Origin: Bacillota bacterium
Lineage (GTDB): Bacteria > Bacillota > Sulfobacillia > JAJYWN01
Reading direction: 5' to 3'
Assembly: GCA_021791495.1 (NCBI GenBank)
Contig: JAJYWN010000006.1
Location: 1 to 53,588, forward strand
DNA length: 53,588 nucleotides
Shown here: in pieces, positions 20,295 through 38,022 of the stretch
How the letters are laid out: each line of letters starts with the position of its first letter
Numbering within the stretch: the first letter of the stretch is position 1
Translations under genes and position numbers: made by a program
Notes under the pieces: generated by a model
Database searches by the model: none
What the model was told of the DNA's origin: nothing
Seen by the model: only the letters and a program-made list of their open reading frames with translations

Positions 20295-20915
20295 TCATTT
20301 GATCGCGTGCAGCCAATCCCCGAGAAGAAACTGCAGTCTGCCCAGGAACAAGGACATGCGCGCCATGATCGTGTTGCCGAAGGCGGTGCCGAAAGCGACC
20401 ATCATGGCCCAACGGCCGATGTTGGCCGGGATGGCCACCACCGGGTTCTTCTCCTGCCGGATCGTGAAGAGAAAATACGTCAGCGTGCACACCAGGGTGA
20501 GGAAGGTAATCGTGTTGTTGATCCCGCTGGGTGCCAGACTGAGCTTGTAGAAGCTACCGGTCAGCTGCCCCACGAGGACGGCGGGGCTGTACCCCAGCAT
20601 GTATCCGCCCCAGTAGCCCACCGTCATGGCGATGGCGCACCTGGTAAGCCAGGCCCCACCCTTGAAGTAGCGGGCATAGAAGAACAGCCCCACCACCACG
20701 GCTGTTAGGAGGTAGTACTTGCCATCCTTCAGGATATCTTTCGTGATCGTGGGCTTGATCCAGTTGTCCCAAGTCATGACCACGCCATGGGCCACGGCCA
20801 TGGCGACGAAGGTGTGCTCCGCCCAACGGTAGACGGGGTTTTCCCTATAGAGGAACGAGAACACCGCCAGAGTCGAGAGAGCGGCGATCCAGACCTGCGC
20901 CGTATGCGAATCCAC
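20295..20915 (-). CDS. Polytopic membrane protein, fourth gene of an uncharacterised operon
   Basis: A 206-residue protein with about six hydrophobic helices (around 8-25, 33-48, 66-82, 92-112, 133-153 and 168-190). It has no signal peptide and no motif I know. The start is at 20915, 13 bp downstream of the preceding stop, so it is the last gene of a tight four-gene unit. Aromatic and charged residues at helix ends (RENPVYRWAEHTF, TWDNWIKPTITKDILKDGKY) look conserved-type rather than random. It probably forms the membrane part of a complex with its operon partners. Function unknown. Confidence 0.75.
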   Translation of the reverse strand: MDSHTAQVWIAALSTLAVFSFLYRENPVYRWAEHTFVAMAVAHGVVMTWDNWIKPTITKDILKDGKYYLLTAVVVGLFFYARYFKGGAWLTRCAIAMTVGYWGGYMLGYSPAVLVGQLTGSFYKLSLAPSGINNTITFLTLVCTLTYFLFTIRQEKNPVVAIPANIGRWAMMVAFGTAFGNTIMARMSLFLGRLQFLLGDWLHAIK

Positions 20916-20928
20916 GTTTACTCACCCC

Positions 20929-21765
20929 CTAAGGCTGCGCGGCCTTGGCGCGCCGCTGAACCCAGTAACCGACGTTCCCGAGGATGATCAGGACGATGAC
21001 CAGCAGATGGGACGCCGACTGCGCGTCCATCCCGGCCACGGCCTTGTCCGGGGCGCCCACTAACATCTCGTATTCCGCCGCCCCGCGCAGACCCATCAGG
21101 ATGCCCTTGAACTGCCCGGAGTTCACATACGGCATATAACCGGGCACCATCACCGACACGGCGCCACCGGTTATGGGCACGCCGTTGGGCTGGCCGAGAT
21201 ACTCCAGCCAGAACTGCATCCCGCTGCCGCCCACAGTGCAAGAAAAGACAACGGCGATGTCGGTGAGCTTCCGTATCTTGCTCATGATGGGCAGGCTCGC
21301 CAGTGAATTCCCTTTGATGTCCACATTCGCGGCGCCGTCCCAGAGGTCGTCCACCATCCGGCGTATGGTTACCGAGCCCCCTGGCTTGTAACCCAGGTTC
21401 ACCCAATCCTTGCCATACTCTTTGCCCATTTTCTTGGCGATGGGTTCAGCCAGGTCTTGGGCCAGCATGGGGCCTTGGGTCCAGTTCCCGAAGAGGACCA
21501 ACCGGTAGTTTTTCTTGAAAGCGTGGATGATGGCCGCCCGGCCCATGGGCAAGAGTTCAGGAATGGCGCTGGGGTCGAAGTCGAAGGAAACCATAACCGC
21601 CGACCCCGGAGGCAACCGGTCCATGGTCTCGAAGACGGTCCTGGTTTCCGGTACCACGTCGATGGGCAGCCCGAGGGGCTTGATCAAGGGTACCACCATA
21701 ACGACCGCGAGGAGGAGGTATATCCACCGACGGTCGATGTTCTCAAGGGATCGCCAGATACTCAT
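20929..21765 (-). CDS. Membrane-anchored protein with a large soluble domain, third gene of the operon
   Basis: From ATG at 21765, behind GAGGGGG, the roughly 278-residue protein has an N-terminal helix (IYLLLAVVMVVPLIKPLGL), a soluble domain of about 200 residues and a C-terminal helix (LLVIVLIILGNVGYWV). The soluble part contains alternating strands and helices (GSAVMVSFDFDPSAIPELLP, then YRLVLFGNWTQGPMLAQDL and GVPITGGAVSVMVPGYMP), suggestive of a Rossmann-like fold. It starts just after the stop of gene two (13 bp gap). I do not recognise a characterised family. Confidence 0.75.
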   Translation of the reverse strand: MSIWRSLENIDRRWIYLLLAVVMVVPLIKPLGLPIDVVPETRTVFETMDRLPPGSAVMVSFDFDPSAIPELLPMGRAAIIHAFKKNYRLVLFGNWTQGPMLAQDLAEPIAKKMGKEYGKDWVNLGYKPGGSVTIRRMVDDLWDGAANVDIKGNSLASLPIMSKIRKLTDIAVVFSCTVGGSGMQFWLEYLGQPNGVPITGGAVSVMVPGYMPYVNSGQFKGILMGLRGAAEYEMLVGAPDKAVAGMDAQSASHLLVIVLIILGNVGYWVQRRAKAAQP

Positions 21766-21778
21766 CGCTGTCGCCCCC

Positions 21779-22405
21779 TCACCGCTCACCCAAGTAGGCC
21801 CGCTCAAGTCCCATGATGATCCGGATCATGGTCGCGTACCCGCCCAGGTAGACCCCAAGCAGGATGCCACGCATGGCGCCGGTGTTCGGGACATTGAGGA
21901 ACCACTGGGATATGTCGGGTATTTGTGACCAGATGATCTTGCCGACCGGTACCCGTCCGAGCATGGCCAGGACGGCGCAGCCCATAAGTACGGTAGCTTC
22001 GACGGTCCGCACGCGGAAGCTGCGAAAAGCGGCGGACACGATATAGAAGGCGAGGATGGAGTACATGGTGGCGACCATTGGGTTATAGAAAGCATTAAAG
22101 AGCCACCGGTAGGCGACGCCCTGATTCGTCTGGATGATCCCCAGGGCCGAATAGCCCCACATCACGACCAGGGCGTAGAGAGAGAACATCCAGTTTGTCC
22201 TTTTCTTCCGGACCTGACTCACGTACACGATGGAAAGGTTGATGGCCCCCAGCAGCCAGGCGAAGTTCGACGCGGTCTGAAACCATTTGGCGGTCCCGGT
22301 CAGGAGGGACGGAAAGGGGCCCACCGCGACATAGCGTCCCAGGATCGGGATCAAGGCCGTGACGAAAACCAGGACCAGCGGCAGTTGCTTCTTCAGCGCA
22401 CCCAC
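21779..22405 (-). CDS. Polytopic membrane protein, second gene of the operon
   Basis: The start is GTG at 22405, supported by AAAGGGGGA seven bases upstream; an in-frame extension to 22471 would overlap the upstream gene and look unnatural. The 208-residue product has about six membrane helices, beginning with KKQLPLVLVFVTALIPILG and including WLLGAINLSIVYVSQVRKKR and a ATVLMGCAVLAMLG segment. Its size and helix number parallel the fourth gene of the operon, so the two could be distant homologues forming a membrane heterodimer. Function unknown. Confidence 0.75.
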   Translation of the reverse strand: MGALKKQLPLVLVFVTALIPILGRYVAVGPFPSLLTGTAKWFQTASNFAWLLGAINLSIVYVSQVRKKRTNWMFSLYALVVMWGYSALGIIQTNQGVAYRWLFNAFYNPMVATMYSILAFYIVSAAFRSFRVRTVEATVLMGCAVLAMLGRVPVGKIIWSQIPDISQWFLNVPNTGAMRGILLGVYLGGYATMIRIIMGLERAYLGER

Positions 22406-22424
22406 GAGCGATTCCCCCTTTCCC

Positions 22425-23252
22425 CTACTTGGCCAGGAGGTTGCGGAGCCACTTGCTCCCAACCGTCTCAAGGATCGTGCCCAGAACCACTATAGCCAGA
22501 AGAAGCATCTTGCCCCAGTCTTGGGCGCCCACCGTACCGGTGAGGGTCGGTTCCTTGGCCAGATAGGCGCCGGCCGCGTACATCTCCTCGCCGATGAGGG
22601 TGTAGTCGCAGACCACGAAGAAGAAGGGCAGTTGAAAGGTGTTGGTGCTGGCCGCGATCTGGACCGCGCCGACTTGATGCCCAGCTTCAGCCAAGAGCAG
22701 GGCCTCGGCGGCGAAAACTCCGACCATGATGTTGGCCGCCGACTTTTCCCGGTGCATGATACCGATAACGGCCGACGTCCAAGCGAACTGGTCCCCGGAC
22801 AGATATCTCACGTCTTCTGGATTGTAGGCCTCCGGCCGACCGGCCTCGAGGTAGGACTGCCGGACGATCTCCTCGGTCACAGGCTGAGCCAGGTAACTCG
22901 CATTCGTAACGATCATCCGCGTGTCGTACCGGGCGCAGGCTTTGGCCGTGTGGGATAACACAGCGAAGGCGGCGTACGTCTGAGCATCGCTGAGGTCGCC
23001 GATACCGGGAATGAACATGAGCGGCCTCCCCATCTCGGTCGCCCGGCCCACCGATTCCTCCAAGGCCTCCAACCCTGGAATCTTCCGGATGGGCGGCACC
23101 GGCAGGCCCGCGCGGGCCCGTCTTACCAAGATGTAGACGGCCAGGGCATAGGCCACCACCAGAAGGAACTGGAAGGCCATCTTGCTGGTTACCAAGCCGA
23201 ACAGGCCCGGTGTGGGCGCGGTTGCGGCCGCCGCCAGAAAAAGGGTACCCAA
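22425..23252 (-). CDS. DUF6754-like membrane protein, first gene of the operon
   Basis: I prefer TTG at 23252, with GGAGG eight bases upstream, giving about 275 residues. A first helix (about 1-20) and a second (MAFQFLLVVAYALAVYILV) are followed by a large soluble domain. This contains GRPLMFIPGIGDLSDAQTYA, AACARYDT-like and NASYLAQPVTEEIV segments, LLLAEAGHQVGAVQIAASTN and LPFFFVVCDYTLIGEEMYAA. A C-terminal membrane helix (LLLAIVVLGTILETVG) ends the protein. The GAVQIA...CDYTLIGEE pattern is what I recall of the DUF6754 family, whose function is unknown. It heads a four-gene minus-strand operon and is the most characteristic member. Confidence 0.75.
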   Translation of the reverse strand: MGTLFLAAAATAPTPGLFGLVTSKMAFQFLLVVAYALAVYILVRRARAGLPVPPIRKIPGLEALEESVGRATEMGRPLMFIPGIGDLSDAQTYAAFAVLSHTAKACARYDTRMIVTNASYLAQPVTEEIVRQSYLEAGRPEAYNPEDVRYLSGDQFAWTSAVIGIMHREKSAANIMVGVFAAEALLLAEAGHQVGAVQIAASTNTFQLPFFFVVCDYTLIGEEMYAAGAYLAKEPTLTGTVGAQDWGKMLLLAIVVLGTILETVGSKWLRNLLAK

Positions 23253-23695
23253 GGCACTCACCTCCAAGAAGTGTCGATTCGGACAGCGTTGCAGCCGGAT
23301 GCGTGAAGGGAACCGATCTACTCGGGAGAGCCCCACCCCCTTGGTCTTGTCTTCCCGCCGTGTTCCGCCCGTGACCGGGGGAGCGGGGCACGGCACAACA
23401 GCGCTGTCGGTCGATACTGCCAGACTGCTTCACGGGGTACAGACAGGGCGTGAACTGAAGACGGTTGGGTGCGAAGAACACGGGGGCGATTCGAGAGTAC
23501 ATTTCACTTAATTATCTTAAAATTCTACGCGCACCGGTAGAATCCTGCCGGAGGGCACCTACCGGCCGACGATCATGGGGGATCTTCAGCTGACAAACAA
23601 ACTGAAAGGGAGCCGGATCTCCGGCCCCCCGTGACGCTACGATGCGCTCTTCCTCTTGCGGACACCGCCCGCCAGGACCTTCCTGTCCCTGACGA
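23253..23695. other. Intergenic region between the DUF6754-like operon and the M14/creatininase locus
   Basis: No gene is seen in these 440 bp. An inverted repeat (CCGGTAG at 23534-23540, CTACCGG at 23559-23565) lies near the middle, and a terminator-like hairpin lies towards the upstream gene. The region should hold the promoter of the DUF6754-like operon, but I could not place a convincing one. Confidence 0.5.
23604..23630 (-). terminator. Terminator of the creatininase/M14 locus
   Basis: On the minus strand GGGGGGCCGGA and TCCGGCTCCC form a stem with one mismatch, followed by CTTTCAGTTTGTTTG. It lies about 65 bp downstream of the second M14 gene, the last of the long minus-strand locus. 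Confidence 0.6.
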
Positions 23696-24664
23696 CTACC
23701 CGATAGCGAACATCGGGCTGGTGGGGCTGGTGGCCGGCGAGCTCACCATGAACAAGATGACGCCGCCGACCGGTGCCTTGATGGTGGCCATGAGTTTCCC
23801 GAAGTAGTCGCGGACTTCGCCCACGACCTGGCCTTCCTTCACCGTGGCCCCGACCTTCACAAAGCTGTAGAAGAGACCAGTCCATTCCGACCGCGTCCAG
23901 TTGAACTGGGTCAGCCAGGTGATCTCCCCAGGTTCACCGAGAGTGGACAGTTTGAAGGAGGGGTCCACCATCTTCAAGAGCTTCAGGACCCGCTCCAGGC
24001 CGCGCAGGTGGAGCTGCACCGATGGTTCGTCCAGCTGCCCCACGGCACCCGATTCCGCCAGCATGCAGGGGATCCCGGCGTCCGACGCCGCGCCGGTGGT
24101 CCCGTTGCCGCCCGCGGTCCGCGACGGGGCGACGTAGGAAATGCCGTAGGCGTTGGCCAGATCACGGCATTTAGCGAGGTAGCTCTCCTCGCCGACGCCC
24201 GGGACGATGCTGAAGGGGATCAAGTCTTCGATCATGTCCCCGCCGTGCAGGTCGATGTAAGCGTCCGACCCCTTCATCACATTACTGAACAAGGTATGGG
24301 CGATCCTCTCCGAGGACGTCCCATCGGGGTTTCCGGGGAAGACGCGGTTCAGGTTCTTGCCGTCCTGGGGGTTGATATAGACGGTCCGGGCGTGAAAGGC
24401 CGGCGGGTTGCAGATGTGCACCACGACCACGGTGCCCGAGACGTCCGCCGGGTCGAGCTTGGCGGCCAGCCGGATGGCGGCCTCGATACCAGGGTATTCC
24501 GCACCGTGGATGCCGCCGGTGACCGAGAGACGCGGCCCGTCCTTGGCGCCGTTGACGAGTGTGACTGGGAGCTGGACATCGGTGCCGGGCACCGGCAGGA
24601 AACCGGTGACCTTGGTGCCGGGGGCAGCCACGAGGCCGCCTACCACTAAGTCCTTCTTGGCCAT
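23696..24664 (-). CDS. M14-family AstE/AspA-type deacylase (second copy)
   Basis: A 322-residue zinc hydrolase of the succinylglutamate desuccinylase/aspartoacylase group. The metal site is visible: His53 and Glu56 in GGIHGAEYPGIEAA, and His140 in YIDLHGGDMIED. Arg and Asn of KNLNRVFPGNPDG belong to the substrate pocket, and LAESGAVGQL carries the likely catalytic Glu. A beta-rich C-terminal region (EITWLTQFNWTRSEWTGLFY) closes the fold. Related enzymes remove acyl groups from N-acyl amino acids. It is about 20 bp downstream of a creatininase-family gene and ends the locus. A paralogue (37063-38022) opens the same locus, so both probably act on the imported substrate or its products. Confidence 0.9.
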   Translation of the reverse strand: MAKKDLVVGGLVAAPGTKVTGFLPVPGTDVQLPVTLVNGAKDGPRLSVTGGIHGAEYPGIEAAIRLAAKLDPADVSGTVVVVHICNPPAFHARTVYINPQDGKNLNRVFPGNPDGTSSERIAHTLFSNVMKGSDAYIDLHGGDMIEDLIPFSIVPGVGEESYLAKCRDLANAYGISYVAPSRTAGGNGTTGAASDAGIPCMLAESGAVGQLDEPSVQLHLRGLERVLKLLKMVDPSFKLSTLGEPGEITWLTQFNWTRSEWTGLFYSFVKVGATVKEGQVVGEVRDYFGKLMATIKAPVGGVILFMVSSPATSPTSPMFAIG

Positions 24665-24684: not shown

Positions 24685-25491
24685 CTACTTGATGGGCTGA
24701 AACTTGATCTGCTTGAACTCTTCGGTGAAGTCGGCCAGGTACTGGGCCACCGCGGCGAAGATCCGCTGCCCATTCTCGGCCGTGGCTTTGGCGGGAGACA
24801 GCGCGTAGTCGGCTTCGGTGGAATGTCCGATCTCCAGCATGTCGCCGGTATCCGAGGTGTCACCCGTCCGCAGTCCGAACCGGATCACACCGCCCTTGAA
24901 CTTGGCGGCCGATCCGTCCAAAATCTGGGTGTTCGGCGCCAGCTTCTTATTGACGGGGACGTTGGCCCGGTCCAGGTGCACGGCTTCCGGAGCCAGGGCC
25001 AGCATCATGGAGGTCTCCACGATATCGCCGTGGCCGATCATAGCCCATTCCTTGCTGAGGCCGCCGGCGATGTCCCACCACTGGGTGTAGGCCGCCGTGA
25101 TGCCGCGCTCGCGCAGGTTCCGGCAGATGCTGGAGAGAGCACCGCCGTTGCCACCGTGACCATTGATGAAAAGGATGTGGGTGGCGCCGTAGTTCACCAG
25201 GCAGTCGATGAACCCCTGGTAGTAAGGGGCCAGCGCCGCCGCGGTGGTGGACAGTGTTCCCGGGAAGTCGGTGTGGTACATGGCGTAGCCGATGGGGATG
25301 ACAGGGGTGATGATGGCGTCCACCTTTTCCCCAACCAGCTTGGCCAGGTGGTCGGCGATCAGATAATCGGTCCCAAGGGGCATATGCGGTCCGTGCTGCT
25401 CCACGCTACCGGTAGGCACTAAGACGAGTTTGGTGGTTTTGAAAGCTTCTTTGGCCTGTTCCCAGGTCATGTACGCGAGAGTTTTGCCCAT
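24685..25491 (-). CDS. Creatininase-family amidohydrolase, copy C
   Basis: A 268-residue member of the creatininase/MftE family of metal-dependent amidohydrolases. Metal-site motifs are VPTGSVEQHGPHMPLGTD (Glu and His of the ExH pair, then the Asp), INGHGGNGGAL, and a late Glu in GDIVETSMMLA. It diverges from the other four copies: QHGPHMPLG replaces HNPLG, and its C-terminal half carries RFGLRTGDTSDTGDMLEIGH, which they lack. That suggests a different substrate or step. It lies between aspartate kinase and the M14 deacylase. The ATG start is at 25491. Confidence 0.92.
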   Translation of the reverse strand: MGKTLAYMTWEQAKEAFKTTKLVLVPTGSVEQHGPHMPLGTDYLIADHLAKLVGEKVDAIITPVIPIGYAMYHTDFPGTLSTTAAALAPYYQGFIDCLVNYGATHILFINGHGGNGGALSSICRNLRERGITAAYTQWWDIAGGLSKEWAMIGHGDIVETSMMLALAPEAVHLDRANVPVNKKLAPNTQILDGSAAKFKGGVIRFGLRTGDTSDTGDMLEIGHSTEADYALSPAKATAENGQRIFAAVAQYLADFTEEFKQIKFQPIK

Positions 25492-28066: not shown

Positions 28067-28819
28067 CTACAGCTTGATCTTCCGCAGTTCGGCGCAGAGG
28101 CCAACATTGTACTCGATATACGCGTCCATCATAGCCTGGCCCAGCTCTTTATTGGCCCCAAAGGGCGGCCGGCCCATGTTCCCCACCTTCTGGCGCTTGT
28201 CCAGTGGGATGGGGAGGCCGATGCGCACGCCGCGGTAACCGGTGGCGGTAATCCCGTCGGTCAGGTCACTGACGGTGGCGGCGCGGGCCTTGGTCATGTC
28301 CACGGTATCGGCGTTCACGGCCATCATGACCGAGGTCTCGAAGTGGCCGCCGTGATCGTCGCAGGGCCAGTCTTCATTGATCTGGGCCAGGGTGGTCCAC
28401 CACTCGGTGTGGGAGCCGACTACCCCGTACTTCTCGTACAGGTCGCCCATGACCATGCCCAGGATAGGCACGTTGCCGCCGTGTCCGTTCACCCACAGGA
28501 AGCGGCGGGCGCCGTGCTTGATGTAGCTCTCGGCGTAGGAGACCAGGATCTTCCGGTAGAGTTCCGGGTCCAGGGTGACCGTGCCAGGAAAACCGGCGAT
28601 GCCCGCCGCCCAGCCGAAGGGCATGACCGGGGCCACAGGGGCGCCCGCCTTCGCACCGATACGCTCGGCGCACCAGGCGGCTACCAGCATGTCTACTCCC
28701 AGGGGGTTGTGGCGGCCGTGTTCTTCGATGCTGCCGACGGGGATGATGACCAGGTCGTTGCCGACCATGGCTTCTTTGAACTCAGACCAGGACATTTCCT
28801 CTATGAGCACTTTCATCAT
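28067..28819 (-). CDS. Creatininase-family amidohydrolase, copy A2
   Basis: A 250-residue copy. Motifs: IPVGSIEEHGRHNPLGVDML (ExH pair and Asp), WVNGHGGNVPILG, a YEKYG segment, and CDDHGGHFETSVMMAVN with the late His and Glu. Known family members hydrolyse cyclic or peptide amides with two bound metals. It is closest by eye to copy A1 (29709-30470), sharing HGRHNPLGVD, NVPILG and EDWPCDDHGGHFETS. It begins with ATGATG behind GGAGGG and lies 31 bp after copy B2. Probably part of a heteromeric or sequential pair with B2. Confidence 0.93.
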   Translation of the reverse strand: MMKVLIEEMSWSEFKEAMVGNDLVIIPVGSIEEHGRHNPLGVDMLVAAWCAERIGAKAGAPVAPVMPFGWAAGIAGFPGTVTLDPELYRKILVSYAESYIKHGARRFLWVNGHGGNVPILGMVMGDLYEKYGVVGSHTEWWTTLAQINEDWPCDDHGGHFETSVMMAVNADTVDMTKARAATVSDLTDGITATGYRGVRIGLPIPLDKRQKVGNMGRPPFGANKELGQAMMDAYIEYNVGLCAELRKIKL

Positions 28820-28850: not shown

Positions 28851-29609
28851 CTAGACGACGAGCTTGCGCAGTTCCTGGGCCAATCCGACGCAGAAGTCCA
28901 CGTAGGCGGAGTACATCTTTTCGCCCAGAGCCTTGTTGGCCTTTTCGGCCGGGGCGCCGTAGTTGCCCTGCGGGGTCAGCTTATCGAGGGGGATGGGAAT
29001 GGGGACGGAAGCCCCCGCGAACTTCAGGCCTTCCTCCCACTCCAGCTTGTCGGTGAGTTGTTTGCGCGGGAGGGTCTTGGCCTTCGACATATCGACGATC
29101 TTCTCGTTCACGGCCATCATCATCGAGGTTTCGTAGTGGCCGCCGTGATCGTTGCACGGGATGTCGGCTATGTGCGGCAGCACGGTCCACCATTCGGAGT
29201 TGGTGGAGATAACCCCGTACTTCTCGTAGAGGTCGTTGGCGACGAACCTCAGGGCCGTCACGTTCCCGCCATGGCCATTGATGAACAGGAACCGCTTGGC
29301 GCCGGCCCGGATGAAGGCCTCGCACACCTGGACCATCACTTGGCGCAGGATCTCCGGATCGATGTGGGCCGTGCCGGGGAAGCCCATGAGGTTACGGGCG
29401 TTGCCGATGGGCATGACCGGGGCCACCGGGGCTCCGACCTTCTCGCCCACGTCCTTGGCCACGGCACGGGCGATTAGCATGTCCGTGCCCAGGGGGTTAT
29501 GCATGCCGTGCTCTTCGATGCTGCCGACCGGCACGATGACCAGGTCGTTGGAGGACATGGCTTCGCCAAAATCGCTCCAGGACATTTCCTCGATCATTAC
29601 CGTCTTCAA
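28851..29609 (-). CDS. Creatininase-family amidohydrolase, copy B2
   Basis: A 252-residue copy from TTG at 29609 (GGAGGTAGCCAC directly upstream); an upstream start at 29648 would add 13 residues without homology. Motifs are [41 protein letters not shown] and CNDHGGHYETSMMMAVNE. B-type features shared with B1 are the [14 protein letters not shown] opening, [10 protein letters not shown] or [10 protein letters not shown], and a C-terminal DKLTPQGNYG segment; A-type copies lack the last two. The short gap to A1 holds a GC-rich hairpin (about 29655-29708), possibly marking the junction of the duplicated units. Confidence 0.93.
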   Translation of the reverse strand: MKTVMIEEMSWSDFGEAMSSNDLVIVPVGSIEEHGMHNPLGTDMLIARAVAKDVGEKVGAPVAPVMPIGNARNLMGFPGTAHIDPEILRQVMVQVCEAFIRAGAKRFLFINGHGGNVTALRFVANDLYEKYGVISTNSEWWTVLPHIADIPCNDHGGHYETSMMMAVNEKIVDMSKAKTLPRKQLTDKLEWEEGLKFAGASVPIPIPLDKLTPQGNYGAPAEKANKALGEKMYSAYVDFCVGLAQELRKLVV

Positions 29610-29708: not shown

Positions 29709-30470
29709 CTAGACCTTCATCTTCCGCAGTTCCGCCGCCAGACCCACGCAGTAATCCACATAGGTCTGGATCATGGCCTTGCCCAGTTCCGCGTTGGCGC
29801 CCCACGGCTCACGGCCGCGGTTCGCCACTTTCTGCCCGGCCTGGCGCTTGTGGGACGGGATGGGCAGGGTCACGGAGACGCCCCGGTAGCCGCCCGCGGC
29901 CAGACCCTCAGACAGAAAGCTGGTGGGAGCCACGCGGGCTTTGGCCATGTCGACGATGTCGGGATTCACGGCCATCATCACGGAAGTCTCGAAGTGGCCG
30001 CCGTGATCGTCGCAGGGCCAATCCTCCTTCAGCTGTTTCAGGGTGGTCCACCACTCCGTGAAGGAACTGATGGTCCCGTACTTTTCGTAGAGGTCGCCGG
30101 CCACGTTGCCAAGGATCGGGACGTTGCCACCGTGACCGTTAATCCACAGGAACCGCTTGGCGCCGTGCTTGATGTAGCTTTCGGCGTAAGAGAAGAGGAC
30201 CTTTCGGTAGAGCTCCGGGTCCAGGGAGACGGTGCCCGGATACCCGGCCAGGCTGGCGGCCCAGCCGAAGGGCATCACCGGGGCCACCGGGGCGCCGACC
30301 TTCTCGCCGATGAGTTTCGCGCAATAGGCGGCCACCAGGAGGTCCACACCCAGGGGATTATGGCGTCCGTGCGCTTCCAGGCTGCCGACCGGCATGATGA
30401 TGAGGTCGTTGCCGGCCATGGCCTCCTTGAATTCGCTCCAAGACATTTCCTCGATCAGGACTTTCTTCAC
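29709..30470 (-). CDS. Creatininase-family amidohydrolase, copy A1
   Basis: A 253-residue copy starting with GTG at 30470, 12 bp after the stop of B1. Motifs are MPVGSLEAHGRHNPLGVDLL, INGHGGNVPILGNVAGDLYE and CDDHGGHFETSVMMAVNP, so all expected metal residues are present. The closest relative is A2, with the same GRHNPLGVD and HFETSVMM signatures. The C-terminal segment has KRQAGQKVANRGREPWGANAEL, slightly longer than in A2. No divergence suggesting inactivation is seen. Confidence 0.93.
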   Translation of the reverse strand: MKKVLIEEMSWSEFKEAMAGNDLIIMPVGSLEAHGRHNPLGVDLLVAAYCAKLIGEKVGAPVAPVMPFGWAASLAGYPGTVSLDPELYRKVLFSYAESYIKHGAKRFLWINGHGGNVPILGNVAGDLYEKYGTISSFTEWWTTLKQLKEDWPCDDHGGHFETSVMMAVNPDIVDMAKARVAPTSFLSEGLAAGGYRGVSVTLPIPSHKRQAGQKVANRGREPWGANAELGKAMIQTYVDYCVGLAAELRKMKV

Positions 30471-30482
30471 TCCCAGCCCCCC

Positions 30483-31241
30483 TTAGATGAGAATCTTCCG
30501 GAGCTCGGCGCAGAGGCCCACGCAGAAGTCCACGTAGGTGTCGAAGAGCCGGTCGCCAATCTCCTTGCTGGCGCCTTCCACGTCCTCGCCGTAGCTCCCC
30601 TGCGGCGTGAGCTTGTCCACGGGAAGCGGGAGGGGCACCGAGGCGCCGCGGAACTTGACCCCTTCGTCCACGGTGAACCCGTCGGCGGGCGGCGTGCGCG
30701 GGACGGTCTTGGCCTTCTTCATGTCGACAATGCGGTGGTTTGCTGCCATCATGAAGGAGGTTTCATGCTTTCCGCCGTGCTCCGAGACGTTCAGACCGAT
30801 GAGCTGATGGAGGGTGGTCCACCATTCGCTGTTGGTCGCGATGACGCCGTACTTCTCATAGAGGTCGTTGGCCACGAAACGCAAAGCGTTGGCGTTGCCA
30901 CCGTGGCCGTTGATGAAGAGGATCCGCTTGGCGCCGTGGCGGATGAAGGCTTCGCAGACCTGCACCATTACCTGGCGCAGTAATTCGCCGTCAAGGTTTA
31001 CGGTCCCAGGGAAACCCATGAGGTTGCGGGCAAAACCGATGGGCATGACCGGCGCCACAGGCACGCCCATTTTCTCTCCGACCGCCTTGGCTACGGCCAG
31101 GGCGATGTGCGTGTCCGTCCCCAGAGGGTTGTGGGGGCCGTGGGACTCGGTGCTGCCAACAGGGACAATAATGAGGTCGTTGGAGGACATGGCTTCCTGG
31201 AAATCAGACCAGGACATTTCCTCGATCATCACCGTCTTCAA
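30483..31241 (-). CDS. Creatininase-family amidohydrolase, copy B1
   Basis: From TTG at 31241, supported by GGGAGGG, the protein has 252 residues; the frame extends upstream to 31325 but that part shows no similarity to B2. Motifs are [40 protein letters not shown] and [17 protein letters not shown]. Thr and Ser around the ExH pair differ from the other copies and may tune the substrate. It is the first of the four-gene array and lies 157 bp after the DppF-type ATPase; a GC-rich hairpin (31351-31381) sits in that gap. Confidence 0.92.
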
Positions 31242-31398: not shown

Positions 31399-32400
31399 CT
31401 ATTGCCCCCAGAAGTGGCAGGCCACGGTGCGTCCCGGCGCTACCTCTTGCAGCTCGGGCTCGCTGGCTTTGCAGATATCTCTGGCCCTGACGCAACGCGG
31501 ATGGAACCGGCAGCCCGTCGGGATGTGGATGGGGCTCGGCGGCTCTCCCTCGATGGCGTACTCGCGGTGCCGCACCCGCGGGTCGAGGACGGGTGCCGCG
31601 GCGGCCAAAACCTTGGTGTAGGGGTGGAGGGGGCGTTCGAAGAGTTCCTGGGTGGGGGCCAACTCCACCACCTTCCCCAGATACATGACGGCCACGCGGT
31701 GCGTGATGTGCCGAATGACACGCAGGTCGTGAGACACGAAGAGGAGCGTGAGATGGAGGTTCTCCTGCAAGTCCTGCAGGAGGTTGATGACCTGAGCCTG
31801 GATGGAAACGTCCAGGGCCGAAACCGGCTCGTCGGCGATGATGAAGAGCGGGTCCACCGCCAGAGCGCGCGCGATGCCCAGGCGCTGGCGCTGGCCGCCC
31901 GAGAACTCACCCGGGAAGCGGTCGGCGGCGGCGATGTTCATGCCGACCATGGCCATGAGTTCAGCCACGCGCGCCTCGGCGTCCTTGGGAGCGCAGACCT
32001 TATGGACGGTCATGGCCTCAATCAACATTTCGCGGACGGACAACCGCGGGTTCAGTGAAGAGTACGGGTCCTGGAAGACCATCTGCATGTGCCGGCGATG
32101 GCCCCGGAACTCCTGGCGGCTGATGTGGGTGATGTCCTTGCCGTTGAACAAGACCGTGCCCTTGTCGGGCTCCTCCAGCCGGAGGATGGCCTTGGCCAGC
32201 GTACTTTTCCCGCAGCCGCTCTCGCCCACCAGACCTAGGGTTTCACCCTGTTTGATGACCAGGCTGACTCCATCCACGGCCCTCACCGACAGCGCCGGCT
32301 TGCGGGCGATGACGTCAAGAATGGCCTGCTTCAGTGGAAAGTGCTTGTAAAGGTCCTTGATGACCACCAAGGGCTGCTCGCCAATGGATGCCACGGCCAT
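31399..32400 (-). CDS. dppF: Dipeptide/oligopeptide ABC transporter ATPase (DppF/OppF type)
   Basis: A 333-residue ATP-binding subunit with Walker [18 protein letters not shown], signature [16 protein letters not shown], Walker [13 protein letters not shown] and the C-terminal oligopeptide extension that includes [14 protein letters not shown], which can bind an iron-sulphur or zinc centre in this family. The [16 protein letters not shown]-loop is typical of OppF. It starts three bases after the DppD stop. With the partner ATPase it drives import through DppB and DppC. Confidence 0.95.
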
Positions 32401-32403
32401 GCT

Positions 32404-33441
32404 CTATCGCCTCCCTTCGGCGACGTTGCCCAGATCGATGATGCCGGACTGCCCGTCCAGCTTGGCGATGAAGTGGCAACGGGAGAAGTGCCCGGGGCCC
32501 ACCTGGACCATCTCCGGATATGTCTCCGTGCAGATGGATTCCGCGAAACGGCAGCGGGGTGCAAAGGGACATCCGGGCGGCAAGTTAGCCAGGTTCGGCG
32601 GCTGGCCCGTGATGGGTTGCAGACGCGAACCGCGCGCCCCGTGAGGCAGCGATCCCATCAGGCCCAGGGTATAGGGATGCCGCGGCGCTCCGAACAAGGT
32701 CAGCGTATCGGTGATTTCCACGATGCGCCCGGCGTACATGACGGCCACACGATCGCACATCTGAGCCACGATCCCCAGGTCGTGCGTGACCATGATGACG
32801 CTCATGCCGAGCCGCTCCTTCAGGCTGACGATGAGCTTCAGGATCTGGTCCTGGATGGTCACGTCCAGGGCGGTGGTGGGCTCGTCGGCCAGGAGGATTT
32901 TGGGCTCCGCCGCCAGAGTGATGGCGATCATGGCGCGTTGACGCATGCCCCCGCTGAACTGGTGAGCGTATTCCTCGATGCGGCGCTCGGGCGACGGCAC
33001 GCCCACCAGGCGCAGCAGTTCGACGGCCCGGGCGTTCTTCTGGTCGGTGGTCAGACCTTTGTTCTCCAGGGACTCGAAGATCTGCTCGCGGATGCGGATG
33101 ACCGGGTTCAGGGCGGTCATCGGTTCCTGGAAGATCATGCCGATCTCACTGCCGCGGTACTTGCGCATTTCGCCCAGGGGGACCTTCAGCAGGTCCTGGC
33201 CCTTATAGCGGACGCTACCGCTGATGATCCTCCCCGGCGGCGCGATGAGACGCAGGATGGAGCGGAGGGTCTGGCTCTTCCCGCTGCCGCTTTCGCCCAC
33301 CAGCCCGAAGGTCTCGCCGGCGGCCAGGCTGAAACTGACGCCGTCGACGGCTTTCACGGTGGCGTCCTTCATGAAGAAGTATGTCTTGAGGTCCTCGACC
33401 TCCAGAAGGTTCTGTCCGCTCTTGACTACCTCAAGTGGCAT
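32404..33441 (-). CDS. dppD: Dipeptide/oligopeptide ABC transporter ATPase (DppD/OppD type)
   Basis: A 345-residue ATPase with Walker A GLVGESGSGKSQTLRSI, GMIFQEPMTALNPV, signature FSGGMRQRAMIAITLA, Walker B ILLADEPTTALDVTIQ and the family C-terminal CPFAPRCRFAESIC motif. In Walker A the residue after GKS is Gln where Thr or Ser is usual, a small variation. The N-terminal segment TYFFMKDATVKAVDGVSF is the usual peptide-transporter opening. It follows DppC by 6 bp. The substrate class is peptide-like, though the neighbours suggest a modified amino acid or cyclic amide. Confidence 0.95.
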   Translation of the reverse strand: MPLEVVKSGQNLLEVEDLKTYFFMKDATVKAVDGVSFSLAAGETFGLVGESGSGKSQTLRSILRLIAPPGRIISGSVRYKGQDLLKVPLGEMRKYRGSEIGMIFQEPMTALNPVIRIREQIFESLENKGLTTDQKNARAVELLRLVGVPSPERRIEEYAHQFSGGMRQRAMIAITLAAEPKILLADEPTTALDVTIQDQILKLIVSLKERLGMSVIMVTHDLGIVAQMCDRVAVMYAGRIVEITDTLTLFGAPRHPYTLGLMGSLPHGARGSRLQPITGQPPNLANLPPGCPFAPRCRFAESICTETYPEMVQVGPGHFSRCHFIAKLDGQSGIIDLGNVAEGRR

Positions 33442-33447
33442 CTCTCG

Positions 33448-34362
33448 TCACCGTCCTTTGGTCCGCAGTAGGTCGGACAGTCCGTCGCCCAGGAGGCTGA
33501 AACCGGTCCCCACGAAGACCAGGGCGAAGCCGGGGAAGGTCGACAGCCACCAGGCACGGGCGATGAACACCCGGCCCTCGGAGATGGCCTGGCCCCACTC
33601 GGGAGTGGGGGGCTGGACGCCCAGACCCAGGAAGCCCATGGAGGCGCCGGCCAGCATGCAGAAAACTACGTCGGCGGCGGTGTAGACGATGGACGAGGAG
33701 AGGACGTTCGGAAGGATATGGCGCAGGATGATGCGCCAGTCGCTATAGCCGAGGACCCGCGCGGCGGACACATAGTCCAGGTTCTTCGCCACCAGGACCT
33801 CGCCCCGGATGATTCTGGCGTACGGCACCCACCCGACCAGGCTGATGGCCATGTACAGGTTATAGATGCCGGGGCCCAGGAAGGCGATGATGGCGATGAC
33901 CAGAACGATGAAGGGGAACGCCACCACGATATCGACCAGGCGCATCAGGATCTGGTCGATGACCCCGCCGTAATAGCCGGCCAAAAGTCCCACCAGAGTA
34001 CCAAAGACGAAGGGGATGGCCGTGCCGATGAGTCCGATCTGCAGGTCGGCTCGGGTGGCCCAGATGACACGGGACAAGATGTCCCGGCCGTAGTTGTCGG
34101 TACCCAGGATGTGTGCGGCGCTGGGGGCCTGCAGCATCAGGTCGGCGTTCTGGGTGTTCGGGTTGTACGGGGCGATGAGCCCCGGGAAAAAGCCGACGAA
34201 GAAGACGAAGGCCACGATGATGATGCCAAGATTCAAGGCCAGGCTCTTCCTCCAGAACGGAATGCTCTTCCTTTTCACTCTGGCCGACGCGGTGGCCGGC
34301 GCCGGCGCCGGGGCGAGATCGCCGGCGGCGTTGGGTGCAGTCGCGGGTTCCAATGGGCTCAC
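33448..34362 (-). CDS. dppC: Dipeptide ABC transporter permease (DppC type)
   Basis: A 304-residue inner-membrane permease with about six helices. An Ala/Pro-rich cytoplasmic head of about 35 residues precedes the first helix (LGIIIVAFVFFVGFFPGLIA). The extracytoplasmic loop contains the DppC hallmark HILGTDNYGRDILSRVIWATR, and the cytoplasmic EAA-like coupling loop is YVSAARVLGYSDWRIILRHI. It lies 4 bp after the DppB stop. Its channel partner is DppB. Confidence 0.95.
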   Translation of the reverse strand: MSPLEPATAPNAAGDLAPAPAPATASARVKRKSIPFWRKSLALNLGIIIVAFVFFVGFFPGLIAPYNPNTQNADLMLQAPSAAHILGTDNYGRDILSRVIWATRADLQIGLIGTAIPFVFGTLVGLLAGYYGGVIDQILMRLVDIVVAFPFIVLVIAIIAFLGPGIYNLYMAISLVGWVPYARIIRGEVLVAKNLDYVSAARVLGYSDWRIILRHILPNVLSSSIVYTAADVVFCMLAGASMGFLGLGVQPPTPEWGQAISEGRVFIARAWWLSTFPGFALVFVGTGFSLLGDGLSDLLRTKGR

Positions 34363-34366
34363 CTCC

Positions 34367-35308
34367 CTACTCCAATTTGACCCTGGGATCCAGGAACGAG
34401 TAAGAGATATCCGTTGCGAGGTTCATGACCATGACCAATAAGGCGAAGATGAAGGTGATGGCCTGGATGATCCCGTAGTCGCGGGCGAAGATCGAATCGA
34501 CCATGAGCTTGCCGACGCCGGGGAGCGCGAAGACCGTCTCGGTGATGACGCTGCCACCCAGCATGCGGGTGAAACTCATGGCCATCAAGGTGACCGTGGA
34601 GATCAAGGCGTTTCGCAGGACGTGGCGGACGATGACTACTCGGTCACGCAAACCTTTGCTCTTCGCGAAATCCACGTAGTCCATGCGCAGCACGTCGACC
34701 ACGTTATTCCGCAAGTTCCGCGTCCACAGGGCGGAGAGTCCCAGAGCTTGAGTGAACGCGGGTAAAATCAGGCTGTAGAATTTCCCGAACAGGCCCTCCC
34801 CCAGACCTCCGACCGGAAACCAGTGGAGCTTCAGGCCGAACAGCAGCATCAACAGGAGGGCGATCCAGAACCCCGGCATGGTCAGGGCGATCAGTGTCCA
34901 GACTCGGACTCCCTGATCGAAGGCCCGGTCCTTGTTGAAGGCGGCAAAATAGCCCATGGGAAAGGCGATCAAGGCCCCGAAGATAGTTGACATAATCGTC
35001 AAGGCGATGGTTACCGGGACGCGGTTCGCCAGAAGGTCGGTGACCGGGACGTGATAGATGAACGAATCCCCCAGGTTCAGGGTGCCGAGATTCTTGAGAA
35101 ATAGGAGGTACTGCTCGACGAGGGGCCGGTCCAGTCCCATCTGATGCCGTAGAATTGTCAGTTGTTCGACGGTGGCCTTGTCGCCGAGGATCGTTTCGGC
35201 CGGGTCTCCCGGGATGAGGTGGATCATCATGAAAATTAGTACCGTGACGAAAAAGAGGACCGGGATGATCTGAAGCAAGCGTCCGACGATGTAGTTTAGC
35301 TGCTTCAA
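34367..35308 (-). CDS. dppB: Dipeptide ABC transporter permease (DppB type)
   Basis: A 313-residue permease with six helices and the DppB-specific signature VTVLIFMMIHLIPGDPAETI near the N-terminus (about 20-39). It also has the coupling loop DYVDFAKSKGLRDRVVIVRHVLRNAL and the periplasmic PGVGKLMVDSIFARDYG motif. It is the first of the four membrane and ATPase genes and is separated from the binding-protein gene by an intercistronic hairpin, which probably sets its lower expression. Confidence 0.95.
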   Translation of the reverse strand: MKQLNYIVGRLLQIIPVLFFVTVLIFMMIHLIPGDPAETILGDKATVEQLTILRHQMGLDRPLVEQYLLFLKNLGTLNLGDSFIYHVPVTDLLANRVPVTIALTIMSTIFGALIAFPMGYFAAFNKDRAFDQGVRVWTLIALTMPGFWIALLLMLLFGLKLHWFPVGGLGEGLFGKFYSLILPAFTQALGLSALWTRNLRNNVVDVLRMDYVDFAKSKGLRDRVVIVRHVLRNALISTVTLMAMSFTRMLGGSVITETVFALPGVGKLMVDSIFARDYGIIQAITFIFALLVMVMNLATDISYSFLDPRVKLE

Positions 35309-35353
35309 GGTCTCACTTCCCTCGGCTCTGGATTACCTTCGGATGGTTGCCAG

Positions 35354-35388
35354 AAGGGGGGCTTGAGGGCACGCCTCAAGCCCCCCTT
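35354..35388 (-). terminator. Intercistronic hairpin between the binding protein and permease genes
   Basis: AAGGGGGGCTTGAGG (35354-35368) and CCTCAAGCCCCCCTT (35374-35388) form a perfect 15-bp stem with a 5-nt loop. No T-run follows on the minus strand, so it more likely stabilises the upstream mRNA or partially attenuates read-through. This is a common design behind abundant binding-protein genes. Confidence 0.75.
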
Positions 35389-35412
35389 TGCCATTACATC
35401 ACGACTATGTGG

Positions 35413-36975
35413 TTACTTCGTCTTGTCGAGGTTCTGGAACAGGTAGTTCCCCAGCGGAGTCTGAACGAACCCAGTGATCTTCTTGCTGGTCGCGAAGGTG
35501 TAAGGCGTGTGGTACAGGGAGATGCGGGGCATCTGCTGATCGATGTACTCCTGCAACTCGTTGTACTCCTGAGTCCTCTTGGCCGCGTCGGTTTCGTACT
35601 CGGCCTTACGGGCCAGGTCCTCAGCCTTCTTGGCGCCCGCCGGATCGGCGATGGCCCAACCGGTCCAGAAGTTCTTGGACGTATCCGGGTAGGTCATGTA
35701 GGCCGCGATCTCGGACGGGTCGACGATGTCGTTGGTCCAGCCGGCGATGATGATCTGGTGGTTCAGAGCCTTGTAGGTCGAGCGCAGAGTGGCATTATCC
35801 ATCTGCTTCACCTGCAGGTCGATGCCGATCCTGGCCCACTGGTCCTTCAGGACCGTGGCGATCTGGACCTGGGTCACGTTGGCGGAGTTGATGGAGAGCT
35901 CCAGCTTGGTGCCGGGGGCCACGCCCGCGTCCTTCAACATGGCCTTGGCCTTATCAGGATCGTAGGGACGGCTCTTGATGGTGGCGTCCCAGTTCGGGCC
36001 GGACTTCGGCATGAACGAAGTCGCTTCGTAGCCGGCCCCGAAGACCACGGTCTTGATGAGGGCGGCCTTGTCCGTGCCATAGGCCAGGGCTTCGCGGACC
36101 TTCAGGTTGTCGAAAGGCTTCTTGGTCAAGTTGAAGCCCAGGTAGTAGGTCATGGTGGACGGAACGAGGATCATGTTCAGGTTCGGGTCTTTCTGGATGT
36201 CGGCGATTCGGCTGAAGGGGATGTTCTCCACCATGTCCACGGCGCCGCTCTGGAGCTGCATGATCCTGGTGTTATCGTCGGGGACCACGGTGATCTTAAT
36301 CTGGTCGACCAACGGCTTCCCCTTTTCCCAATAGTACGGGTTCCTCTTCAGGAGGATGTACTCGCCCTTTTTCCATTCGGCGATGTAGAACGGACCGGTG
36401 CCGAGCGGTTTCTGAGAGTAACCCTGCGCTCCCACCTTATCGAAATAGGCCTTCGAGGTGATGACCGCATTGAACATGGCCAGGCCGGCCATGGCCGCCG
36501 GGGCGGGCTGCTTCAGGCTGACTTTCACGTGGTCGGCATCGACCTTCTCAACCTTGCTGATGGCGTCCAGCGCGAACTGCCACGGAGAGTCTTTGGTCTG
36601 GTAGGCGCGATTCAGGGAGAAGACCACGTCGTCGGCGGTCATGTTCGTGCCATCGGAGAACTTCACGCCCTTGCGGAGAGTAAAGGTAATGGCTTTCTTG
36701 TCGTCGGACCACTTATATTCGGTCGCCAACGCGGGCAGGTCGTTCTTCGTGCCCTCGTTATCTGTCTTCACCAAACCCTCCATGGCCAGGTTGAACACCC
36801 AGATGTTGACGTTGCCGTCCTGCATAACCGGGTCGAGGTTATCGGAGTCGGCGGGGCGGGCCATGATGATGGTCTTGCCGGTGTTCTTGGCCTTGCCGCT
36901 GCAGCCGGCCAGCGTCAGCGTGACCGCCAAGACGGCGATCAGGACGAGGCCGATGATCACTCTAGACTTCCGCAT
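35413..36975 (-). CDS. Dipeptide-type substrate-binding lipoprotein (SBP family 5)
   Basis: I chose ATG at 36975 because of AAAGGAGG upstream and the textbook lipoprotein signal that follows; an extension to 37059 is open but lacks a binding site. The 520-residue protein has a lipobox LAGC with Cys25, so it is anchored on the outside of the membrane. The family 5 motif is TFTLRKGVKFSDGTNMTADDVVFSLNR-like (about 105-130), then LGTGPFYIAEWKKGEYILLKRN and VREALAYGTDKAALIK. It should capture the locus substrate and hand it to DppB/DppC. Confidence 0.95.
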   Translation of the reverse strand: MRKSRVIIGLVLIAVLAVTLTLAGCSGKAKNTGKTIIMARPADSDNLDPVMQDGNVNIWVFNLAMEGLVKTDNEGTKNDLPALATEYKWSDDKKAITFTLRKGVKFSDGTNMTADDVVFSLNRAYQTKDSPWQFALDAISKVEKVDADHVKVSLKQPAPAAMAGLAMFNAVITSKAYFDKVGAQGYSQKPLGTGPFYIAEWKKGEYILLKRNPYYWEKGKPLVDQIKITVVPDDNTRIMQLQSGAVDMVENIPFSRIADIQKDPNLNMILVPSTMTYYLGFNLTKKPFDNLKVREALAYGTDKAALIKTVVFGAGYEATSFMPKSGPNWDATIKSRPYDPDKAKAMLKDAGVAPGTKLELSINSANVTQVQIATVLKDQWARIGIDLQVKQMDNATLRSTYKALNHQIIIAGWTNDIVDPSEIAAYMTYPDTSKNFWTGWAIADPAGAKKAEDLARKAEYETDAAKRTQEYNELQEYIDQQMPRISLYHTPYTFATSKKITGFVQTPLGNYLFQNLDKTK

Positions 36976-37062: not shown

Positions 37063-38022
37063 CTACTCGTGCCGAACGATGGAATGAAGCTCCACCAAGA
37101 CGTTGCCGACCCCTACCGACGGGCTGGTCCGGACCACCGTGACGAGGGCATCGTCCGGCATCCGGATCTCCATAAGACGGGCACCGAAGTAATCTCTGAT
37201 CTCGCCTACCACCTCATCCTTCGCGACCTTCTGATTAAGATGGACGAATGGGACCCAGTACCCCGCAATGGGACTGCGGATGGCGGCCCGGGCATCAAGG
37301 TAGGTGCGACGGACGGTGTTCATGATCTGTCCGTCCATCATCCCCAGCTTGATGAGGATGTTCTTCAGACCGGTCAGGTGCACTTTCGCGTCGTCCATGT
37401 TCAAGATCCCTTGCTGGCCGGATTCGGTCAGGATGGCCGGTACGCCGCGCAAGGCTACCTTCGTGAAGCCGCTGGCCGGCTTGTCGGAAGCCTGAACCGG
37501 CCGGTGGATGATGAGGGGGATGTTGTAGACTTCCGCCATTTCATCGATCTTCTGGTCCACCTCGGCGTTCCCGGTCAACGGGCACATAACAAAGGGTGTC
37601 AGGGATTCAGGGATGTCGCCGCCGTGCAGTTCCACATAGTAATCGGCCTGGGAAAGGACGTGTTCGTTCAGGTGGTGCGCCATGACCTCGGAGAAGGTGC
37701 CGTTCAGCTTACCCGGGAAAGTCCCGCCCGGGTTCCGGCCGTCCTGGGGGACGACGAAGCCCATGTGATTCTGGAAGGCGGGAAGGTTGTAGATGGTGCA
37801 AATAACGAGGGTGCCGCGGAGGTTGACCGGATCGACTTCGTTGAAAAGGTCGATGGCCGCCTGAATCCCACAGAACTCGCTGCCATGCATGCCCCCCACC
37901 ACCACCATGGTGGGTCCGGGGTTCTTGCCGTAGATGGTCCCGACTGGGAAGCGGATGGCCTCTCCGGTGTTCTGGAAAGTGAACTCCAGCCACTCCCGTT
38001 TCTTCAGATTACGCGTATCCAC
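37063..38022 (-). CDS. M14-family AstE/AspA-type deacylase (first copy)
   Basis: A 319-residue zinc hydrolase with the metal triad His46 and Glu49 in GGMHGSEFCGIQAA and His133 in VELHGGDIPES. GRNPGGTFPGKLNG lies at the substrate pocket and TESGQQGIL carries the probable catalytic Glu. A beta-rich C-terminal domain follows. The GTG start at 38022 is preceded by GGAGGAG. It opens the minus-strand locus and lies just upstream of the binding lipoprotein gene. It is similar in layout to the second copy (23696-24664), but by eye the GRNPGG region of this copy lacks the KNLNR motif seen there, so specificity may differ. Confidence 0.92.
   Translation of the reverse strand: MDTRNLKKREWLEFTFQNTGEAIRFPVGTIYGKNPGPTMVVVGGMHGSEFCGIQAAIDLFNEVDPVNLRGTLVICTIYNLPAFQNHMGFVVPQDGRNPGGTFPGKLNGTFSEVMAHHLNEHVLSQADYYVELHGGDIPESLTPFVMCPLTGNAEVDQKIDEMAEVYNIPLIIHRPVQASDKPASGFTKVALRGVPAILTESGQQGILNMDDAKVHLTGLKNILIKLGMMDGQIMNTVRRTYLDARAAIRSPIAGYWVPFVHLNQKVAKDEVVGEIRDYFGARLMEIRMPDDALVTVVRTSPSVGVGNVLVELHSIVRHE

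What the first reader, a model, noticed from the sequence alone, without database searches (positions are those of the whole stretch)
20295..23252. Uncharacterised four-gene membrane complex operon
Four tightly spaced genes encode a DUF6754-like protein with a large soluble domain, a six-helix protein, a bitopic protein with a Rossmann-like soluble domain, and a second six-helix protein. The alternation of soluble-domain and polytopic subunits suggests two pairs assembling into one membrane machine. No enzyme in the window explains it.
Basis: inference. Interest (0 to 1): 0.65.

Follow-up and report, generated by a model that had tools for sequence, protein, structure and literature searches.

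The report
Unknown four-part membrane machine with ATPase
Four neighbouring genes of unknown function always travel together across a dozen or more groups of little-studied microbes and almost always occur with a separate two-gene ATPase unit, so they very probably encode an undescribed membrane machine, most likely a family of nutrient transporters.

Summary
Only g1 has a Pfam family; none matches a known complex. The set is far more than a local curiosity. The window's genome has seven copies, one relative has 27, and 169 complete g1-g2-g3-g4 modules in fixed order were collected from Bacillota, many candidate phyla and one archaeal genome bin. Genomes with the module almost always also encode a long MutL-type ASKHA ATPase and a barrel-sandwich protein (c4): 23 of 25 among 299 phylum genomes; for c4 alone, 30 of 31 DUF6754 genomes in other phyla. 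These partners are often in the same operon, and MutL and c4 are fused in three genomes. g1 puts a Rossmann-like domain in the cytoplasm, g3 one outside; g2 and g4 have about six helices each. Sequence homology between the proposed pairs (g1/g3, g2/g4) was tested and not found. In Bacillota, operon neighbours are enriched in hydrolases of amide bonds and peptides; elsewhere they are not. Best reading: a new family of multi-subunit transporters served by a shared MutL/c4 unit. Existence and partnership are strongly supported; the transport function is inference.

The parts
22425..23252 (-). g1, DUF6754 protein: TM helix, cytoplasmic Rossmann-like domain, TM helix (275 aa, TTG start after a GGAGGTGA site)
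   Evidence: PF20539 E 2.8e-93; model pLDDT 93
21779..22408 (-). g2, six-TM protein, N-in/C-in by the positive-inside rule, invariant R180 and several other conserved Arg
   Evidence: no family above a cut-off in Pfam, NCBIfam or PHROGs
20929..21765 (-). g3, TM helix, extracytoplasmic Rossmann-like domain, TM helix (278 aa)
   Evidence: (model pLDDT 96.5); no family (9, 10, 105)
20295..20915 (-). g4, polytopic protein with about six TM helices plus a C-terminal amphipathic or seventh helix, probably N-out
   Evidence: no family above a cut-off
23607..23630 (-). terminator-like hairpin (10 pairs, 8 GC) between the AstE/AspA-type gene and g1, so g1-g4 are probably a separate transcription unit
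   Evidence: consensus match only; 4 found against 2.8 expected in the region

Best explanation
g1-g4 encode one membrane complex, a substrate-specific permease of a family not yet described. g2 and g4 form the membrane path. The extracytoplasmic Rossmann-like domain of g3 meets the substrate outside. The cytoplasmic Rossmann-like domain of g1 is the coupling or gating part. A soluble unit encoded elsewhere, the long MutL-type ASKHA ATPase plus the barrel-sandwich protein c4, serves all the modules of a cell, much as one energising module serves many substrate units in group-II ECF transporters. In Bacillota the modules have multiplied and probably import amino-acid derivatives and small peptides (N-acyl-D-amino acids, gamma-glutamyl and cyclic amides, dipeptides) for the hydrolases encoded beside them. 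Shown here: the conserved module, the co-occurrence with MutL/c4, the MutL-c4 fusions, and the neighbour enrichment in Bacillota. Predicted: topology and folds. Inferred: physical assembly, transport, direction, substrate class and ATP coupling.
For: Fixed order g1-g2-g3-g4 in 47 Bacillota-phylum loci and nearly all of 80 named genome loci; 169 complete modules with gaps of 15-27 bases. Transporter-like expansion: 7 copies in this genome, 27 in G311, 9 in G322. Distances between paralogous modules correlate among subunits within one genome (G311 all pairs p<=0.01; not all pairs in the smaller sets). c4 and MutL-long occur in the same 24 of 299 genomes, 23 of which have DUF6754 (25 do in all; Fisher p 5e-31); 30 of 31 DUF6754 genomes of other phyla have c4. 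Shared operons with MutL, c4, c6 and c8 across phyla; MutL-c4 fusion genes in L264, L265 and L266. In Bacillota 33 of 101 operon-adjacent genes against 17 of 334 distant genes are amide or peptide hydrolases (p 5e-12; without G311 p 2e-7). Opposite-sided soluble domains by positive-inside counts and by signal peptide plus FN3-like region before the first TM helix of g1 in other phyla.
Against: Outside Bacillota the operon neighbours are not hydrolases but lipoate ligase, sulfatases, PTS enzyme I, dehydroquinate synthase and others. Modules next to D-aminoacylases do not group together in the subunit distances. No ABC-type or other recognised transport domain is present in g1-g4. Known MutL/GlmL proteins are accessory to B12 mutases, not known transport ATPases. 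MutL/c4 also sit beside ABC export genes (L249, L252, L256), so they are not exclusive to g1-g4. G009 has c4 and a partial MutL without DUF6754; G350 has DUF6754 without c4. In this window the module is separated from the nearest hydrolase gene by a terminator-like hairpin.
Confidence: 0.42

Rival explanations
1. The complex is a secondary (ion-driven) transporter or channel, and MutL/c4 is only an assembly or reactivation factor, as GlmL is thought to be for glutamate mutase. The ATPase keeps the membrane complex functional instead of driving transport.
For: The partner belongs to the MutL/GlmL family (PF13941 E 2e-126; NCBIfam GlmL 217 bits, below its cut-off of 475), whose known members are mutase accessories. 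MutL/c4 also appear next to ABC transporters that have their own ATPase (L249, L256). One MutL/c4 set per genome is common while modules vary from 1 to 7.
Against: No test here separates this from the main reading; the extreme phyletic coupling fits either. c4 and c6 have no counterpart in known mutase operons that I know of (own knowledge).
Confidence: 0.22
2. The complex works outward: it exports or flips an envelope component or metabolite, or takes part in cell-envelope turnover; the hydrolase neighbours reflect peptidoglycan-peptide recycling.
For: Several neighbours act on D-amino-acid or gamma-glutamyl peptides or resemble penicillin-binding/beta-lactamase enzymes. MutL/c4 pair with MacB/FtsX-type genes in some loci. 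In some diderm genomes g1 carries up to about 700 residues of FN3-like sequence outside the membrane.
Against: The same hydrolases are ordinary catabolic enzymes, and outside Bacillota the neighbours do not point to the envelope. Expansion to 27 paralogues is more typical of uptake systems (own knowledge).
Confidence: 0.15
3. The complex is not a transporter but a membrane-bound enzyme, redox or sensory complex whose Rossmann-like domains bind a nucleotide or other ligand.
For: Both soluble domains are Rossmann-like; the nearest solved folds are enzymes and ligand-binding domains (g1: Sir2 Z 12.0, PGK 10.6, MthK RCK 10.1; g3: MT0777 Z 10.6, then SDRs and TrkA about 8.5). c4 has an RnfC_N-like barrel-sandwich region (E 4e-7).
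Against: No Foldseek match at E<=0.001 for either model. The conserved positions of g2, g3 and g4 include no cysteine that would suggest a redox centre; g1 has one conserved Cys, C215.
Confidence: 0.15

Closest known systems
Pfam PF20539 (DUF6754)
   Same: g1 is a full-length member (312 bits, cut-off 27).
   Different: The family is an annotation without a function; no paper in the held library names it. It says nothing of g2-g4 or of MutL/c4.
Group-II ECF transporters (shared energising module, many substrate units)
   Same: Many paralogous membrane modules per genome and fewer copies of a soluble ATPase unit encoded elsewhere in several genomes.
   Different: The ATPase is ASKHA-fold MutL, not ABC; no ABC domain in g1-g4; four-gene permease; sharing is inferred from gene counts, not shown.
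GlmL/MutL accessory proteins (PF13941) of glutamate and ornithine aminomutase operons
   Same: The partner ATPase belongs to the same superfamily over about 475 residues.
   Different: The partner is about 610 aa against about 460, scores below the equivalog cut-offs (217 of 475; 206 of 600), and forms its own class: >500 bits in 24 genomes, while other PF13941 proteins reach at most 212. It sits with c4, c6 and DUF6754 modules.
Rnf/Nqr complexes
   Same: Architecture only: two polytopic six-helix-type subunits of probably opposite topology, plus a soluble subunit with a barrel-sandwich domain (c4 matches RnfC_N).
   Different: No Rnf-Nqr family hit in g2 or g4, and no conserved cysteines in g2-g4 for clusters or flavins.
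RCK/TrkA gating domains of ion channels
   Same: The cytoplasmic domain of g1 resembles RCK/TrkA Rossmann domains (VIA Z about 9-10, rmsd about 3-4, 113-138 residues).
   Different: Not distinguishable from other Rossmann folds (Sir2 scores higher); g2 and g4 have no channel family hit.

Membership tests
DUF6754 (PF20539) | full-domain match above the curated cut-off | tested here: met
   g1 312 bits against 27, residues 24-272
DUF6754-MutL-c4 system (defined here) | fixed g1-g2-g3-g4 order on one strand | tested here: met
   exceptions L138, L162 and one extra lone g1 in L116
DUF6754-MutL-c4 system (defined here) | genome also encodes MutL-long and c4 | tested here: met
   own genome; 23 of 25 DUF6754 genomes in the Bacillota set; c4 in 30 of 31 elsewhere
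ABC transporters (including ECF) | ABC ATPase domain within the module | tested here: not met
   no ABC_tran or ECF family among g1-g4 hits at E<=1
TRAP or tripartite tricarboxylate transporters | DctM/DctQ or TctA/TctB membrane families | tested here: not met
   no such Pfam or NCBIfam hit for g2 or g4
Rnf/Nqr | Rnf-Nqr membrane family and redox ligands | tested here: not met
   no Pfam hit; no conserved Cys in g2 or g4
MutL/GlmL (partner protein) | PF13941 domain | tested here: met
   E 2e-126 for L102:14082-15950
GlmL equivalog (partner protein) | score above the NCBIfam equivalog cut-off | tested here: not met
   217 bits against 475
Inverted homologous subunit pairs (g1/g3, g2/g4) | detectable sequence homology within a pair | tested here: not met
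Inverted homologous subunit pairs (g1/g3, g2/g4) | same fold with opposite membrane orientation | tested here: inconclusive
   g1 and g3 share element order and opposite sidedness; models could not be superposed, and g2/g4 were not predicted
Any solved-structure family for g1 or g3 | fold match clearly above background | tested here: inconclusive
   best VIA Z 12.0 (Sir2) for g1 and 10.6 (MT0777) for g3 among many Rossmann folds
Transporter | substrate movement across the membrane | not testable with these tools
   needs uptake assays

The most novel reading that the evidence does not exclude
A new class of primary-active transporter in which an ASKHA-fold ATPase (MutL-long) with the barrel-sandwich adaptor c4 drives many interchangeable four-subunit permeases, spread over at least a dozen phyla.
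Probability: 0.2. Interest if true: 0.93.

Novelty: categorically new. Interest (0 to 1): 0.7.

Why it matters
An unstudied membrane complex is present in many uncultured phyla and up to 27 times in one genome, so it must matter to how these cells feed or maintain themselves, yet three of its four subunits and most of its partners have no family name. If it is a transporter, a whole class is missing from metabolic reconstructions of anaerobic Bacillota and candidate phyla, and an ASKHA ATPase would have a new role. The phyletic coupling to MutL/c4 turns an anonymous DUF into a directly testable system.

Tried and rejected
Homology g1/g3 and g2/g4: hhalign local and global and ungapped profile scans gave nothing beyond controls; a C-terminal motif match seen by eye (g1 VGAQDWGK..., g3 MDAQSASH...) was the best diagonal at two window lengths but not significant. 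Solved relatives by sequence: none for g1-g4 or MutL, only weak barrel and KOW matches for c4. Fold searches: generic Rossmann matches only, no Foldseek E<=0.001; absence of a family from those lists is not evidence against it. Defence role: no PADLOC hit. Phage origin: no PHROGs hit. Literature: no paper on DUF6754, PF20539 or PF13941 in the held library; other paper searches gave nothing relevant. Module type tracking hydrolase type: not seen for D-aminoacylase-linked modules in G311. Hydrolase link as a universal clue: fails outside Bacillota. A first simple gene caller mis-called antisense ORFs and was replaced.

Full report
WHAT IS THERE. The four genes exist as described. On the minus strand, in order of transcription: g1 22425-23252, g2 21779-22408, g3 20929-21765, g4 20295-20915, with 13-16 bases between them. 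g1 is a full member of Pfam PF20539, DUF6754 (E 2.8e-93); g2, g3 and g4 match no family above a cut-off in Pfam, NCBIfam or PHROGs. A terminator-like hairpin at 23607-23630 lies between the preceding AstE/AspA-type gene and g1, so the four genes are probably their own transcription unit.

HOW CONSERVED IT IS. The window's genome (4.2 Mb, 81 contigs) holds seven copies of g1 and seven of g3, next to each other each time. Among 299 genomes drawn evenly from the same phylum, 25 hold DUF6754; among 31 near relatives, 15 do, with 27 copies in genome G311 and 9 in G322. A scan of named genomes found at least 569 loci, and the best 80 come from Bacillota (Fermentithermobacillaceae, Symbiobacterium), Zixibacteria, WOR-3/Stahlbacteria, Cloacimonadota, Eisenbacteria, Poribacteria, Planctomycetota, Armatimonadota, Coatesbacteria, Sumerlaeota, Latescibacterota, Fermentibacteria and one archaeal bin. 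Gene order g1-g2-g3-g4 on one strand holds in all 47 first loci apart from contig edges and in nearly all of the 80. After a six-frame check of 15 incomplete cases, only L138 and L162 have g1 with room but no g2-g4 next to it, and L116 carries an extra lone g1. In 169 complete modules the median gaps are 27, 21 and 15 bases, and distances between paralogous modules of one genome correlate between subunits (G311: all six pairs p<=0.01; smaller genomes: some pairs). Tandem double and triple modules occur.

TOPOLOGY AND FOLD. Family-averaged hydropathy gives two TM helices around a soluble domain in g1 and g3, six TM helices in g2 and about six in g4. Positive-inside counts place the g1 domain in the cytoplasm (K+R 3.7 after TM1 against 1.6 before) and the g3 domain outside (3.1 before TM1, 0.9 after; 0.8 before TM2, 4.0 after). 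In diderm phyla g1 has a signal peptide and an FN3-like region (a weak Pfam match, below cut-off) before TM1, reaching about 700 residues in three genomes, which independently places the N-terminus outside and the DUF6754 domain inside. g2 is N-in/C-in (K+R 10.1 on even loops against 4.0 on odd loops); g4 is probably N-out, and its C-terminal helix is unclear. AlphaFold models are confident (g1 pLDDT 93.0, g3 96.5) and show Rossmann-like domains with nearly the same order of elements. Fold searches give only generic Rossmann neighbours: g1 Sir2 Z 12.0 and MthK RCK Z about 10; g3 MT0777 Z 10.6.

THE MISSING PARTNERS. Clustering of neighbours revealed recurring companions in about 30 loci from several phyla: a MutL-type ASKHA protein of about 610 aa (PF13941 E 2e-126), c4 (about 375-440 aa, barrel-sandwich region matching RnfC_N, KOW-like end), c6 (about 120 aa) and c8 (about 150 aa, membrane). 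Where they are not adjacent they are still in the genome. Among the 299 phylum genomes, strong c4 hits occur in 24 and strong MutL-long hits in the same 24, and 23 of these hold DUF6754 (Fisher p 5e-31 for c4 against DUF6754). The DUF6754 genomes without c4 are G019 (78% complete) and G095 (a weak, divergent DUF6754 hit); G009 has c4 and a partial MutL without DUF6754. Other PF13941 proteins score at most 212 bits, so the long class is distinct. In 31 DUF6754 genomes of other phyla, 30 hold c4, usually one copy against 1-7 modules. MutL and c4 are fused in one ORF in L264, L265 and L266. In the window's own genome, MutL/c4 sets lie on other contigs; the loci at the end of C56 and the start of C7 (L255, L253) look like two halves of the conserved c8-MutL-c4-c6-c6-MutL-c4 locus without g1-g4 between (contig joining is inference). 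So the phyletic link goes well beyond simple operon conservation.

WHAT IT MAY DO. In Bacillota the operon-adjacent genes are enriched in hydrolases of amide bonds and peptides: 33 of 101 against 17 of 334 distant genes of the same loci (p 5e-12; 21 of 78 against 17 of 326, p 2e-7, without G311). They include D-aminoacylases and other amidohydrolases, M20, M24 and C26 peptidases and beta-lactamase-like enzymes; single cases are a creatininase, a dipeptidase and a LamB/YcsF protein. Caveat: the representatives used for counting were picked from the adjacent set, though Pfam counts agree (13 amidohydrolase members of 99 adjacent genes; one seen, and not among families with two or more members, in the 90 controls). 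Many paralogous membrane modules, each next to a different small-molecule hydrolase and rarely next to another transporter, is the pattern of substrate-specific uptake systems. Against this, outside Bacillota the neighbours are mixed housekeeping and other genes, and module relatedness does not follow hydrolase type in G311.

MECHANISM PROPOSED. g2 and g4 form the membrane path, g3 meets substrate outside, g1 couples inside, and MutL/c4 energise or maintain all modules of the cell. Shown: module conservation, phyletic link, fusions, neighbour enrichment. Predicted: topology, folds. Inferred: assembly, transport, direction, substrate class and ATP coupling. I put about 0.98 on a real conserved module, 0.9 on a functional link to MutL/c4, 0.5 on a transport role of some kind beyond the rivals' share, 0.35 on import of amide or peptide substrates in Bacillota and 0.2-0.3 on ATP-driven transport by MutL.

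KNOWN OR NEW. No paper in the held library mentions DUF6754, PF20539 or PF13941, no solved structure is a sequence relative, and no ABC, TRAP, TTT or Rnf/Nqr signature is met. The only known pieces are the DUF label and the MutL superfamily.

LIMITS. Gene calls outside the window come from a script of mine. Most genomes are metagenome bins. The copy counts of MutL/c4 and of modules are approximate in fragmented bins. Only g1 and g3 could be modelled, and complexes could not be predicted.

Noticed in passing
window 24685-25491, 28067-28819, 28851-29609, 29709-30470, 30483-31241 (all -): Five creatininase-family genes in one region with aspartokinase and aspartate-semialdehyde dehydrogenase between them, two AstE/AspA-type genes (23696-24664, 37063-38022) and a five-gene oligopeptide ABC transporter (31399-36975); an unusual possible amide or peptide degradation island.
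   Followed up: partly
L264:4957-7863, L265:3196-6009, L266:7844-10825: MutL-type ATPase and c4 fused in a single gene of 937-993 aa, probably in Cloacimonadota-type genomes.
   Followed up: yes
L249, L252, L256: MutL and/or c4 encoded beside ABC export genes, MacB/FtsX-type in L249 and L256 and ABC-2-type in L252, suggesting that the MutL/c4 unit also serves other membrane machines.
   Followed up: no
L260:1285-4233, L261:1380-4373, L262:1380-4397: DUF6754 proteins of about 1000 aa with a signal peptide and a very long FN3-like extracytoplasmic part.
   Followed up: partly
L269, L270, L271 (genome G342): A 1.4 Mb Methanomethylicota (archaeal) bin carries four DUF6754 copies plus c4 and MutL; neighbouring genes look archaeal, but bin contamination is not excluded.
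   Followed up: partly
L252:7822-10388 (genome G009): c4 plus a shortened MutL-long without any DUF6754 in a 98% complete genome; possibly a remnant after loss of the module.
   Followed up: partly
L071, L069, L073 (and L068 for part): In one Bacillota group the module, MutL and c4 sit beside the tRNA threonylcarbamoyladenosine genes (tsaE, tsaB, rimI, tsaD).
   Followed up: no
L113, L122, L123, L127, L129, L134, L175, L177: In Eisenbacteria-like genomes the operon lies near glycine cleavage genes and a lipoate ligase.
   Followed up: no
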